From Paracamarosporium sp. OC-R06-R3 (taxonomy: Eukaryota; Ascomycota; Dothideomycetes; Pleosporales; Didymosphaeriaceae): 64,000 nucleotides of DNA. The position numbers and the translations under genes were made by a program. Shown here one piece after another: positions 55,152 through 58,877 of this stretch (positions are counted from its first letter, which is position 1; each line of letters begins with the position of its first letter). The stretch spans positions 124,001 through 188,000 of the forward strand of contig JACVRA010000120.1 of assembly GCA_019828545.1 (NCBI GenBank), given 5' to 3'. Below the pieces are notes generated by a model that searched no databases, had not been told where the DNA came from, and saw only the letters and a list, made by a program, of their open reading frames with translations.

Positions 55152-58100
55152 ATGGCTGACCAGCTCGATATCGGTCGTCTCTCCATGCACGACTCGCAGC
55201 ACGCTCCTGGAGGCTTCCAGCCTGAGCGCTCTGCCTACATTCCTCCTCACATGCGCCGTCAGCAGCAGGCTGGCCCGCCTCCCGCGATGGACGGCCCTCC
55301 GCCCATGATGAACGGTGGCGGCGGCATGAACGGCAGCGCCTGGGGACCCAAGTCAGTACTCCTCGACCCCATCGACGGAAGATGTTTTGCAATGCTGACA
55401 CAACGTAGCGGCGGTGGATACGGAGGCCCTCAACAGCGTATGAACGGTGGCGGCAACTGGGCGAACGCAAACGCTCAGAGCTTCACCCCTCGAGGTAGCG
55501 ATGCTCCCATCCGCGGTGGCAACGGCGGCTGGAGCGGCGCTGCCCCCGGCAAATTTGATCCCAATGCTTACGGCAAACCAGGTGCAGGCGGTTCTGGTGG
55601 CGGCGCTGCACGTGGGTCTGGCGATGGACAGTGGAGGGATGGCAAGCACATTCCCGGTCCTTCCAACCCGCGTATCGAGCGTGAGCTATTCGGTGTCCCC
55701 AACGATCCGTCGAAGCAACACACCGGTATCAACTTCGAGAAATATGACGACATCCCCGTCGAAGCTTCCGGTCAGGGCGTCCCTGAACCCGTCACCACTT
55801 TCACGAATCCTCCCCTCGACGACCACCTCATCAGCAACATCGAACTTGCTGGCTACAAGGTCCCCACTCCCGTCCAAAAGTATTCGATCCCCATCGTCAT
55901 GGGCGGTCGTGATTTGATGGCTTGCGCCCAGACTGGTTCTGGAAAAACTGGTGGTTTCTTGTTCCCCATCCTCTCTCAAGCTTATCAGACTGGCCCTAGC
56001 GCTACTCCCGCGCCTCAGTCTGGTGGCTATGGTTATGGACGTCAACGCAAGGCCTACCCCACTTCTTTGATCTTGGCCCCGACTCGCGAGTTGGTGTCCC
56101 AGATTTATGATGAGGCCCGCAAGTTTGCTTACCGCTCTTGGGTTCGCCCTTGCGTTGTCTATGGTGGTGCCGACATCGGTTCTCAGCTTCGCCAAATCGA
56201 GCGCGGCTGTGACTTGCTTGTCGCCACTCCCGGTCGCTTGGTCGACTTGATTGAGCGTGGCCGTATCTCTCTCCAGAACATCAAGTATCTTGTTCTTGAT
56301 GAGGCCGATCGTATGTTGGACATGGGTTTCGAGCCCCAGATTCGCCGCATTGTTGAGGGCGAGGATATGCCCCCTACCGCTGCGCGTCAGACTCTTATGT
56401 TTTCTGCTACTTTCCCCCGCGACATCCAGATGCTTGCTCGCGATTTCTTGAAGGAGTACATTTTCCTTTCTGTCGGTCGTGTTGGTTCCACTTCCGAGAA
56501 CATTACTCAGAAAGTTGAGTACGTCGAGGACCAGGACAAGCGTTCCGTTCTGCTCGACATCCTGCACACCCACGGTGCTGGCCTGACGCTTATTTTCGTC
56601 GAGACGAAGCGCATGGCCGACTCGCTCTCCGACTTCCTTATCAACCAGGGTTTCCCTGCTACCTCCATTCATGGAGACCGCACTCAGCGTGAGCGTGAGA
56701 AGGCCTTGGAGATGTTCCGCACTGGCCGTTGCCCCATCCTTGTTGCTACGGCCGTTGCTGCTCGAGGTATGTTCCTTTTCCATCACCAGTTTATTGAATT
56801 CTGGGTCATCGTCCTATCCTGCTACTGTATCATGGGGTGTTTTTATCTCAGTTCATTCACTAACGTATACAACAGGGTATGTTCTGTTCCTTCCCTAAAA
56901 CCTGACTCTACCTTCCCCTTCACTTATCTTTATCACCTTCCCTTTCCTATTTTCTTTTGTTCTTTACTACTTTTTTGTTCTTCCCTATGGAGATGTGGTC
57001 CTTCCATCATTTGGGTGGCATGCAGCACCCCTTTGTTTTTATTTCCTCGACATCCTGTTGTTGTCACCTCATTCCTTCTGGATACCGGACCGGAACCCTG
57101 CACACACCTGAATACATCCCATCCTAGCCTGGACTCAGAATGCTGGCCGACCTACCTGACACGGACGATGTCCATGAATTCATCGTCATTCTGTCCTGGG
57201 CTCTGCTCAGGCTAACTTCCAATGCAATGAAGAGCCCTACCTTCATGCGCATAATGCCAACTCAGGATGCAGTCCAGAACCTCATGCATCTGTCTTGCGT
57301 ACAATTCGCCAGTGGCGTAATGGAGGTCTTTCGCTCACCTACCCCTCCACCGGTCTCTTACTTCAAAGGATTGCATTTGCCCCTACATCAAAACCTGTGG
57401 GCTGTGTATCATCTCACATTGGAGAAAGAGAACTGTGCTTCCATGGGCTACATCGGCTCTGGCACGAACAGGGACACTGGCTTCGACACTAGGATGGGTC
57501 ACTATGACAAGCGGTCTGACGAAGGTTACTCTGAGGAATTCCAACACGATCCCCTCATGCCCGAGTTCGTTCAAAAGTACATGAAGGGATATGTCATCAC
57601 CAACAAATGCGTACTGGCCTGGGCACCTATACCTCATGCTGCCGACCGGATTCCAGTAAGGACCTTCTTCTACCTGCTTGAGTCGTTCTTCACCATGACA
57701 TTTTGGACGATGTCCAACAATGTCACAGACTACGGCATGCCCCATATGTGTCCGTGGCCTATCAATAGCTTCGAGTACCGCGGTCTGTGTACGCATTTCC
57801 CTCTCGCGGATAGAATCCCGGGTAGTGGTGACTGGACACCTAATGACACTCGTACACGAGAAGAAATCGCAGCTGTCGATTCTGACCGCAGGAAGGACAA
57901 GGCGGCTCGCAATGTTGTGTATCGAAAGAATGCCCTCGATGATCAACGGTACTTGTGTTCAGTCTGCGAGATAGCTTTCCCCAACAAAGCTAAGCTACTG
58001 GCTCACGAGAAGACCTCTACCCACCAAAACAAGGTCCTTGGTGTGAGCCGTGCTAGGAAGTCGTCATTCTGGTGCGAACTCTGCAAATACAGCGCTCCAT

Positions 58101-58877
58101 GTGCAAAGCGGCTTGACATACACCTGAAGGGGGTCCGGCATGCGAAAAAGCTACGCCTCAAGGGCTCGAGCACCACGCTCGAGTAACCTTGATGCACACC
58201 ATACCCTGGATTTTTTGGATCTATCCTCTTACCGGACTATGGATTCTGTCTTCATTTCGGTTCATCTTCGGCTGTCTCCCTACCGCATCATGGATTTTTC
58301 TGTTTTTTCATTTCGCTTCATCCACGTCGATCTCAATTCACTACTTCCATTCGCATATGCTAACACGTCCAGACTTGACATTCCGAACGTTACTCACGTT
58401 GTCAACTACGATCTCCCCACCGACATTGACGACTATGTTCACCGTATTGGCCGTACCGGCCGTGCTGGAAACACTGGTATCTCTACTGCGTTCTTCAACC
58501 GTGGCAACCGTGGCGTTGTCCGTGATCTCATTGAGCTTTTGAAGGAAGCCAATCAAGAGGTTCCCACTTTCCTGGAAAGCATTGCTCGCGAGGGCTCTTA
58601 CGGCGGTGGCCGTGGAGGCCGCGGTGGAGGTCGCGGTCGCGGAGCTGCTGCTACTCGCGACGTACGTCGCTACGGTGGTGGTGGCGGCGGCGGCGGCGGC
58701 AACTCTGGCTTCGGCGGAGGAGGTTGGGGTGGTGCTCCACAGGGCGGCTATAGTGGAGGTGGTGGTGGCGGCGGCTTCGCCCCCAATAACTACGGTCCTG
58801 CTGGAGGCTACGGTGGCGGCAGCTACGGCGGTGGTTATGGCAACCCCTCCGGCCCTGGCGGCAACTCTTGGTGGTAA
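55152..58877 (+). CDS. DED1: DEAD-box RNA helicase Ded1, interrupted at motif V
   Basis: ATP-dependent RNA helicase of 687 aa needed for translation initiation. Exons: 55152-55351, 55409-56766, 56876 (one nucleotide) and 58373-58877 (2,064 nt). Motifs: Q-motif region [13 protein letters not shown], motif I AQTGSGKT (240-247), PTRELV, GG, TPGR, DEAD (364-367), SAT, then VATAVAARG and [13 protein letters not shown] split by the introns, and motif [12 protein letters not shown]. The tail is RGG/glycine-rich, as in Ded1. The junction codon Gly520 needs G from exon 2, the G at 56876 and A from the last exon; direct joining of the outer sites would shift the frame. The last intron (56877-58372) carries a separate ORF. 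Confidence 0.93.
56767..56875 (+). other. DED1 intron A, 109 nt
   Basis: GTATGT donor, CACTAAC branch site and ACAACAG acceptor. It is followed by a single G and immediately another GTATGT donor. Confidence 0.8.
57140..58186 (+). CDS. GIY-YIG-like nuclease with two C2H2 zinc fingers, inside a DED1 intron
   Basis: Free-standing 348-aa ORF on the host gene's strand, wholly inside intron B. Residues 88-109 read AVYHLT...MGYIGSGT, matching the two halves of the GIY-YIG core (A-V-Y at 88-90, Y-I-G at 104-106). Candidate catalytic partners follow: R118 in TRMGHY and E181 in the helix [13 protein letters not shown]. The C-terminus has two U1/JAZ-type fingers with C-x2-C-x12-H-x5-H spacing: C273, C276, H289, H295 and C312, C315, H328, H334, with a basic tail. 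A nuclease core plus zinc fingers fits a DNA-targeting endonuclease. Function, substrate and expression are inferred. It has no stop or frameshift. It could instead be an independent gene nested in the intron. Confidence 0.72.
58230..58322 (+). repeat. Imperfect direct repeat in DED1 intron B
   Basis: Two related stretches of about 40 bp, 58230-58266 and 58281-58322, share TACCG, then ATGGATT, then TCATTTCG and TTCATC in the same order with small gaps. They lie between the nuclease-like ORF and the branch site. Confidence 0.6.

What the first reader, a model, noticed from the sequence alone, without database searches (positions are those of the whole stretch)
57140..58186. GIY-YIG plus zinc-finger ORF inside a spliceosomal intron of nuclear DED1
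The long DED1 intron carries an intact 348-codon ORF with GIY-YIG-like core residues (AVY, YIGSGT, R118, E181) and two C-x2-C-x12-H-x5-H fingers. The intron sits inside helicase motif V, one of the most conserved sites in DEAD-box genes, as homing endonucleases prefer. Known GIY-YIG homing enzymes live in phage or organelle group I introns or stand free; a nuclear spliceosomal intron host would be a new type of selfish intron or intron-spreading agent.
Basis: partly seen in the sequence, partly recalled or inferred. Interest (0 to 1): 0.92.

Follow-up and report, generated by a model that had tools for sequence, protein, structure and literature searches.

The report
Homing-type nuclease gene inside DED1 intron
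An ordinary-looking intron in a conserved nuclear gene of a fungus carries an intact gene that looks like a DNA-cutting enzyme of the kind that spreads self-splicing introns, and relatives sit at the same spot in another fungus's DED1 and at one spot in a second conserved gene, which suggests that ordinary nuclear introns can also be selfish, spreading elements.

Summary
An intact 348-codon ORF (57140-58186) lies inside a 1,496-nt GT-AG intron of nuclear DED1, in helicase motif V (AARG|LDIP). A 34-sequence AlphaFold model (pLDDT 91) shows a GIY-YIG-type order of strands and helices plus two C2H2 fingers. Profile alignment to known GIY-YIG enzymes is in register at both motifs; none of 200 shuffles scores as high. 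No Pfam GIY-YIG match and no solved GIY-YIG structure was hit. Tyr90, Arg118 and Tyr122 are kept in 51 of 51 counted family rows, Glu181 in 42. The host gene is legible for 8 of 58 members: two at the identical DED1 site (this genome, Fusarium nematophilum), six at one site in nuclear ATP1 (six genera). The two sites fall in two clades split 100/100, though with 8 labelled rows this clustering is only suggestive (34-40 of 500 label shuffles do as well). Best reading: spliceosomal homing introns ('shintrons', described in 2025 from mirusviruses) in cellular nuclear genes. Cleavage, splicing and mobility are not shown; vertical inheritance is not excluded (AU p = 0.19). No RNA data and no DED1 empty site could be examined.

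The parts
55152..55351 (+). DED1 exon 1
   Evidence: open frame, donor GTCAGT at 55352
55352..55408 (+). short ordinary intron near the 5' end of DED1
   Evidence: GTCAGT...TAG, keeps the frame; the only one of four in-frame acceptor positions printed that ends in AG
55409..56766 (+). DED1 exon 2, ends inside motif V after ...VATAVAAR and one base of the Gly codon
56767..56875 (+). upstream intron of the pair, 109 nt, GTATGT ... CTAAC (56860) ... CAG
56876..56876 (+). one-nucleotide exon G between the two introns (needed for frame)
   Evidence: inferred from frame, no RNA data
56877..58372 (+). ORF-bearing intron, 1,496 nt, GTATGT ... GCTAAC (58359) ... CAG
   Evidence: no Rfam group I/II match
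57140..58186 (+). 348-aa ORF: GIY-YIG-type nuclease (predicted) with two C2H2 zinc fingers
57392..57709 (+). GIY-YIG-like core (residues 85-190): AVY (88-90), YIGSGT (104-109), R118, Y122, E181
   Evidence: AlphaFold model strands 86-95, 101-108, 152-163 and helices 115-128, 167-187; residue counts
57950..58024 (+). C2H2 finger 1 (residues 271-295)
   Evidence: (below curated cut-offs on its own)
58067..58141 (+). C2H2 finger 2, zf-met (residues 310-334)
   Evidence: PF12874, 28.2 bits for the whole protein against cut-off 21.2
58373..58877 (+). last DED1 exon (A of the split GGA codon, then LDIPNVTHV... to the stop)

Best explanation
The DED1 intron at 56877-58372 is a spliceosomal homing intron. 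The spliceosome removes it, so DED1 is not harmed. Its ORF encodes a two-part enzyme: a GIY-YIG-type nuclease and, at the C-terminus, C2H2 fingers that bind DNA. When a DED1 allele without the insertion meets it in the same cell or nucleus (mating, hyphal fusion), the enzyme would cut that allele in the sequence coding for motif V, and repair from the occupied allele would copy the intron in. A related clade has done the same at one site in ATP1. SHOWN by sequence: an intact ORF, GT-AG borders, kept active-site-type residues, the same site in two DED1 genes, and one site, within the accuracy of gene models, in six ATP1 genes. INFERRED: splicing, nuclease activity, expression from within the intron, cutting of empty alleles, spread by homing.
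For: GIY-YIG identity: confident model with the strand-strand-helix-strand-helix order of GIY-YIG enzymes (pLDDT 91.3). hhalign against 10 phage/mitochondrial GIY-YIG enzymes: score 27.8 (full) and 27.4 (core), AVY on GIY and YIGSGT on YIG in both, R118 on the Arg in the core alignment; 0 of 200 column shuffles reach either score (max 19.9 and 18.4). Y90, R118, Y122 in 51 of 51 counted domain rows, E181 in 42. UniRef names three members GIY-YIG (P0019, P0022, P0052). Site fidelity: a Fusarium nematophilum DED1 model holds a 42%-identical ORF exactly at VAA|GLDIP; five ATP1 models break right after APFT(G) into a relative, and a sixth runs from a relative into ATP1 a few residues downstream. 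DED1- and ATP1-located members fall in two clades split 100/100. Own ATP1 has only a 59-nt ORF-free intron at that phase-1 position. One identical copy of DED1's last exon.
Against: No PF01541 match in the window protein (E <= 5), in 8 members scanned at E <= 10, nor among the 25 of 47 families shown for 34 members. The hhalign probabilities are low (40% core, 13% full), the match stops near residue 148 and does not reach E181, and in the full alignment R118 does not fall on the Arg. Structure searches of the PDB list zinc fingers and no GIY-YIG row; in the viral library nothing is under E 0.001 and the first row is an HNH-named protein (E 0.017). Weak PHROG rows include HNH endonucleases (2 members and 1 member). 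With only 8 labelled rows, 40 (ATP1) and 34 (DED1) of 500 label shuffles are as clustered as observed. Host-like branching is not rejected (AU p = 0.189). No DED1 locus without the intron was seen. Host gene legible for 8 of 58 members, only through fused gene models, a biased sample. P0058, in ATP1, has Cys at the YIG Tyr; nine Colletotrichum rows have Lys for the Glu.
Confidence: 0.65

Rival explanations
1. Domesticated nested gene: the nuclease was fixed long ago, is inherited vertically in DED1 and ATP1 introns, and now serves the host (repair, or regulation of the host gene through the intron).
For: Kept catalytic-type residues over deep divergence. Host-like branching among the located members is not rejected (AU p = 0.189). 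Codon use like DED1's.
Against: Two clades tied to two unrelated host genes at very conserved coding motifs is what homing predicts and a host function does not (few labelled rows). The ORF diverges much faster than DED1 (42% against 89% and 77% identity). Own ATP1 has no ORF at the site.
Confidence: 0.18
2. The endonuclease gene alone is the mobile unit: it invaded pre-existing ordinary introns next to conserved exon sequence, and the introns themselves did not arrive with it. (This overlaps with the best explanation; it differs in what moved first.)
For: Own ATP1 carries a 59-nt ordinary intron at the position where other fungi have the ORF. The DED1 ORF intron abuts another ordinary intron.
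Against: In DED1 the 109-nt intron and the ORF intron are separate, each with its own donor, branch-type motif and acceptor, so the ORF came with, or got, an intron of its own. The short ATP1 intron may equally be a remnant after ORF loss.
Confidence: 0.3
3. GIY-YIG-shaped DNA-binding protein without nuclease activity, for example a repressor derived from a homing enzyme.
For: Colletotrichum copies without the catalytic-type Glu suggest that activity can be lost (9 rows). Sequence similarity to known nucleases is remote.
Against: The window and the other seven located members keep Y90, R118, Y122 and E181 (P0058 lacks the YIG Tyr).
Confidence: 0.1
4. Chance ORF or decayed remnant in a long intron.
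For: None beyond single copy number.
Against: 0 of 1000 shuffles reach its length; 57 homologous proteins found.
Confidence: 0.01

Closest known systems
Mirusvirus spliceosomal homing introns ('shintrons'), PMC12768974 (abstract start, passages and section 9 read)
   Same: GT-AG introns without group I/II signature that nest GIY-YIG (132), HNH (171) and other endonuclease genes; endonuclease types prefer particular host genes. The study also reports introns with another nested gene (MING-1) at one exact site over great divergence.
   Different: Those lie in viral genes, mostly virion genes. Here the hosts are nuclear genes of cellular fungi (DED1, ATP1), the enzyme has C-terminal C2H2 fingers, and in DED1 the intron abuts a second ordinary intron with a 1-nt exon between. 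Sequence kinship with the mirusvirus enzymes was not tested (their sequences were not fetched).
Faustovirus E12 capsid gene introns, PMC6247863 (passages read)
   Same: GIY-YIG ORFs in two introns of a conserved gene that has both group I and potential spliceosomal introns.
   Different: Viral gene; non-canonical splice sites; five of its introns are group I.
Phage and fungal mitochondrial GIY-YIG homing endonucleases (I-TevI type; also the mitochondrial-looking ORF P0054 on contig C300 of this genome)
   Same: GIY and YIG motifs in register; N-terminal nuclease with C-terminal DNA-binding part (I-TevI layout recalled).
   Different: Those ride in self-splicing group I introns or stand free; here a spliceosomal-type intron in nuclear DNA and two C2H2 fingers.
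Nuclear rDNA group I introns with His-Cys homing endonucleases (PMC9548176, search listing with abstract start only)
   Same: Homing enzyme gene in a eukaryotic nucleus.
   Different: Ribozyme intron, rDNA, other nuclease family.
Introner elements (recalled; mentioned in the passages seen of PMC12768974 and PMC11889510)
   Same: Mobile sequences that behave as spliceosomal introns.
   Different: Introners are short multicopy elements (recalled); this is single copy, site-bound and carries a nuclease-type gene.

Membership tests
GIY-YIG nuclease superfamily | core of two strands with GIY and YIG motifs, helix, strand, helix | tested here: met
   prediction only: (strands 86-95, 101-108, 152-163; helices 115-128, 167-187); both motifs in register in profile alignment. 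The order typical of the superfamily is recalled.
GIY-YIG nuclease superfamily | catalytic Tyr, Arg (with residue at Arg+4) and Glu | tested here: met
   window has Y90, Y104, R118, Y122, E181; of 51 counted rows (74 domain rows in all, 23 dropped for gaps at these positions) Y90, R118, Y122 in 51, Y104 in 49, E181 in 42 (roles of the residues recalled)
GIY-YIG nuclease superfamily | match to the curated sequence model PF01541 (a diagnostic aid, not a definition) | tested here: not met
   E <= 5; 8 members, E <= 10; 25 of 47 families shown for 34 members
GIY-YIG nuclease superfamily | fold match to solved GIY-YIG structures | tested here: inconclusive
   zinc fingers fill the lists; in the viral library the first row is HNH-named (E 0.017) and rows named intron-associated or homing endonuclease follow at E 0.03 and worse
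GIY-YIG nuclease superfamily | DNA cleavage | not testable with these tools
   needs purified protein
Spliceosomal homing intron (shintron) | spliceosomal borders and no group I/II intron signature | tested here: met
   GTATGT, CTAAC, CAG; no Rfam match at E <= 1 in 55000-59500 nor at gathering score in the window
Spliceosomal homing intron (shintron) | nested gene of a homing-endonuclease superfamily | tested here: met
   by predicted fold, profile alignment and residues; subject to the GIY-YIG rows above
Spliceosomal homing intron (shintron) | target-gene and site specificity | tested here: met
   2 of 2 located members of one clade at DED1, 6 of 6 located members of the other at ATP1; 50 of 58 members unlocated; label shuffles as clustered: 34 and 40 of 500, so suggestive
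Spliceosomal homing intron (shintron) | occupied and empty alleles / mobility | tested here: inconclusive
   own ATP1 has an ORF-free 59-nt intron at the site; no DED1 empty site available; AU test p = 0.189
Spliceosomal homing intron (shintron) | removal by the spliceosome shown in RNA | not testable with these tools
   no RNA data

The most novel reading that the evidence does not exclude
Ascomycete nuclei harbour active, site-specific selfish spliceosomal introns (at least two target lineages, DED1 and ATP1) that spread by endonuclease-driven homing. When the endonuclease gene decays they leave ordinary short introns behind, as the 59-nt intron at the ATP1 site of this genome may be. They would then be a source of new, position-conserved spliceosomal introns in conserved genes.
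Probability: 0.28. Interest if true: 0.94.

Novelty: new variant of a known kind. Interest (0 to 1): 0.82.

Why it matters
[quoted passage not shown]). An intron of a conserved nuclear gene with an intact homing-type gene, found at the same codon in another fungus and repeated at a second gene, gives a concrete and testable case of intron spread by homing in cells. Such elements also corrupt gene models: seven database proteins met here are ATP1 or DED1 fused to the ORF (P0005, P0034, P0045, P0055-P0058).

Tried and rejected
Chance ORF: rejected (and 57 homologous proteins). Group I/II intron: no Rfam match. Extra copies in the genome: none with four query proteins; the three PF01541 hits in G000 are on other contigs. 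Duplication between the 109-nt intron and the flanks of the ORF intron: local matches no better than base shuffles (88 and 47 of 300 as high). Relatives in viral contigs and prokaryote genomes: none confirmed, but each scan used only two short patterns. PHROGs: mostly zinc-finger or unnamed rows, with two HNH endonuclease families matched weakly by 2 members and 1 member (25 of 28 families shown); NCBIfam: three weak zinc-binding rows. PDB fold lists show no GIY-YIG row; zinc fingers fill them, so the absence says little. Horizontal transfer from the tree of located members: not shown. A printed report of the fungal case: none noticed in the listings of ten library searches, of which searches listed only part of their hits; most subscription papers and preprints are not held.

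Full report
WHAT IS THERE. The window (G000:C17:124001-188000) is from an unnamed 43.09-Mb genome. I could not name the species; its DED1 and ATP1 are close to those of the ascomycetes compared, and no other fungi were compared. The gene at 55152-58877 is DED1: spliced, 687 aa, 89% identical over 381 columns and 77% over 92 to a Fusarium nematophilum model. In motif V the gene is broken by two adjacent introns, 56767-56875 (109 nt) and 56877-58372 (1,496 nt), separated by the single nucleotide G at 56876. Only removal of both, keeping that G, restores CGA-GGA-CTT (R-G-L) and the frame. 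Both have GTATGT donors, a CTAAC branch-type motif and a CAG acceptor. The second carries the 348-aa ORF, in a frame other than DED1's and with its own ATG. The 1-nt exon rests on frame alone; an assembly error near 58373 could also explain it, and RNA data would settle it.

THE ORF IS A REAL GENE. None of 1000 dinucleotide shuffles of the intron gave an ORF of 348 codons (max 253). Its codon use resembles DED1's in frame (0.40) and not out of frame (-0.24, -0.05). Its third positions are 61% GC, against 44-45% GC in the intron's non-coding flanks. A first search found 5 homologues, a profile search 53 (only the 7992 candidates sharing most words were scored), and a search aimed at longer proteins added four, P0055-P0058. 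That makes 57 proteins and the window, 58 members; members with a species name are ascomycetes, most are unnamed metagenome sequences.

WHAT IT ENCODES. The single sequence matches only zinc-finger models. A structure predicted from 34 members has pLDDT 91.3 and pTM 0.81, against 66.4 and 0.55 from 5 members. Its core runs strand 86-95 (AVY), strand 101-108 (YIGSGT), helix 115-128 (R118, Y122), strand 152-163, helix 167-187 (E181), the order of GIY-YIG nucleases (recalled). Two C2H2 fingers follow at 271-295 and 310-334. Profile alignment to ten reference GIY-YIG enzymes (nine phage loci L007-L015 and P0054 from contig C300 of this genome) scores 27.8 for the full family alignment and 27.4 for the core, in register at both motifs; R118 meets the Arg in the core alignment but not in the full one, and the match ends near residue 148, short of E181. 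200 column-shuffled references gave at most 19.9 and 18.4, the reversed reference 13.6 and 13.1. The hhalign probability is low (13% full, 40% core), so kinship to known GIY-YIG enzymes is remote.

ACTIVE-SITE RESIDUES. 74 domain rows from all 58 members were aligned; 51 have all seven core positions and were counted, 23 were dropped for gaps (many are finger-only pieces). Y90, G106, R118 and Y122 are in 51, G150 in 50, Y104 in 49 (P0031 has Asn, the ATP1-located P0058 has Cys), E181 in 42; the nine others have Lys and are all Colletotrichum proteins. Among the dropped rows P0047 and P0049 lack the YIG Tyr and P0049 has Cys at 181.

RESULTS AGAINST. No PF01541 match, no GIY-YIG row among PDB structure matches, no viral-library match under E 0.001 with an HNH-named protein first at 0.017, and weak PHROG matches to HNH families in 2 members and 1 member.

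WHERE THE FAMILY LIVES. Gene models that fused the ORF to its host show the location for 7 proteins; with the window, 8 of 58 members. DED1: this window, and Fusarium nematophilum P0057, where ...ILVATAVAA is followed by the ORF and then GLDIPNV..., the same site; the two ORFs are 42% identical. ATP1 (nuclear ATP synthase alpha): Verticillium albo-atrum P0005, Pyrenophora teres P0034, Colletotrichum tanaceti P0045, Cytospora paraplurivora P0055, Parachaetomium inaequale P0056, Phialocephala subalpina P0058. Five of these break right after APFT(G); P0034 starts with the ORF and resumes at FRDNGKH. Where the downstream side is in the model (P0034, P0055, P0056, P0058) ATP1 resumes between SMGEWF and NGKH. 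So the ATP1 ORFs share one place within the accuracy of gene models. Four Colletotrichum models (P0035, P0038, P0041, P0043) are joined to a different, unidentified protein.

TREE. 39 of the 58 members were put in a tree (fragments and most Colletotrichum copies were left out). It splits 100/100 into 19 rows that hold both DED1 members and 20 rows that hold all six ATP1 members. Only 8 rows are labelled, and 40 (ATP1) and 34 (DED1) of 500 label shuffles are as clustered, so the tie between clade and host gene is suggestive. The window and Fusarium ORFs are not sisters: seven unlocated rows sit with them in a 100/99 group of nine. In this tree Pyrenophora joins the Sordariomycete rows apart from Phialocephala (96/91), against the accepted class order (recalled), but on a long branch. 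For the eight located rows alone, the host-like grouping is not rejected (AU p = 0.189). So transfer between species is neither shown nor excluded.

ORF-FREE SITES. This genome's ATP1 has a 59-nt intron at TTC ACT G|GT TGC (APFTG|C), phase 1, without an ORF. That is the position of the ORF introns in the other fungi and the same phase as the DED1 site. Six uninterrupted stretches that fit ARG-x-DIP coding DNA occur elsewhere in the genome, against none for the reversed pattern (whether each is a DEAD-box gene was not checked). DED1's last exon has one identical copy; five other places match it at 41-60%. No DED1 locus without the intron could be examined.

HOW IT MOST LIKELY WORKS. Splicing hides the element; the ORF, expressed from unspliced RNA or a promoter in the intron (unknown), yields a modular enzyme. 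Fingers bind and the GIY-YIG core cuts the uninterrupted DED1 motif-V sequence in a partner nucleus, and repair copies the intron. Very conserved coding stretches of essential genes are the safest targets, as for mitochondrial homing introns (recalled). Steps after 'intact gene at a fixed site' are inference. The main rivals are a domesticated nested gene, and mobility of the nuclease gene alone into older introns.

AGAINST WHAT IS KNOWN. The 2025 mirusvirus study names spliceosomal homing introns and states that such endonucleases had not been seen in spliceosomal introns before (PMC12768974, passages and section 9). Ten searches of the held library listed no fungal or other cellular case that I could recognise from titles and abstract starts; four of them listed only part of their hits. 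I rate this a new variant of a known kind: same principle, new setting (cellular nuclear genes), new enzyme layout.

Noticed in passing
window 56767-56876: A 109-nt intron and a 1,496-nt intron separated by a single-nucleotide exon (CAG|G|GTATGT), a recursive-splicing or stwintron-like arrangement; not confirmed by RNA.
   Followed up: partly
L016 (G000:C306, minus strand) locus 1271-1329: ATP1 of the same genome has a 59-nt ORF-free intron at the position that carries the nuclease ORF in other fungi.
   Followed up: yes
P0019, P0022, P0033, P0035, P0038, P0039, P0041, P0043, P0044 (Colletotrichum): Copies of the family, some tandem or fused to another protein, with Lys at the catalytic-type Glu and no aligned fingers: probably decayed or repurposed.
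   Followed up: partly
L003 (G000:C300:12179-12442): A separate mitochondrial-looking GIY-YIG endonuclease ORF (P0054), over the PF01541 cut-off.
   Followed up: partly
window 27002-27164: 75-bp tandem repeat: two near-identical copies of a KREAEPEA(D/E)PEADPNCRFPGMPCSR unit, then KREAEAG, with Kex2-type KR and dipeptide spacers: looks like an alpha-type mating pheromone precursor (family recalled).
   Followed up: partly
P0025: A family member with finger residues aligned in three stretches (four C2H2 fingers), suggesting that the DNA-binding part can grow by repeats.
   Followed up: no
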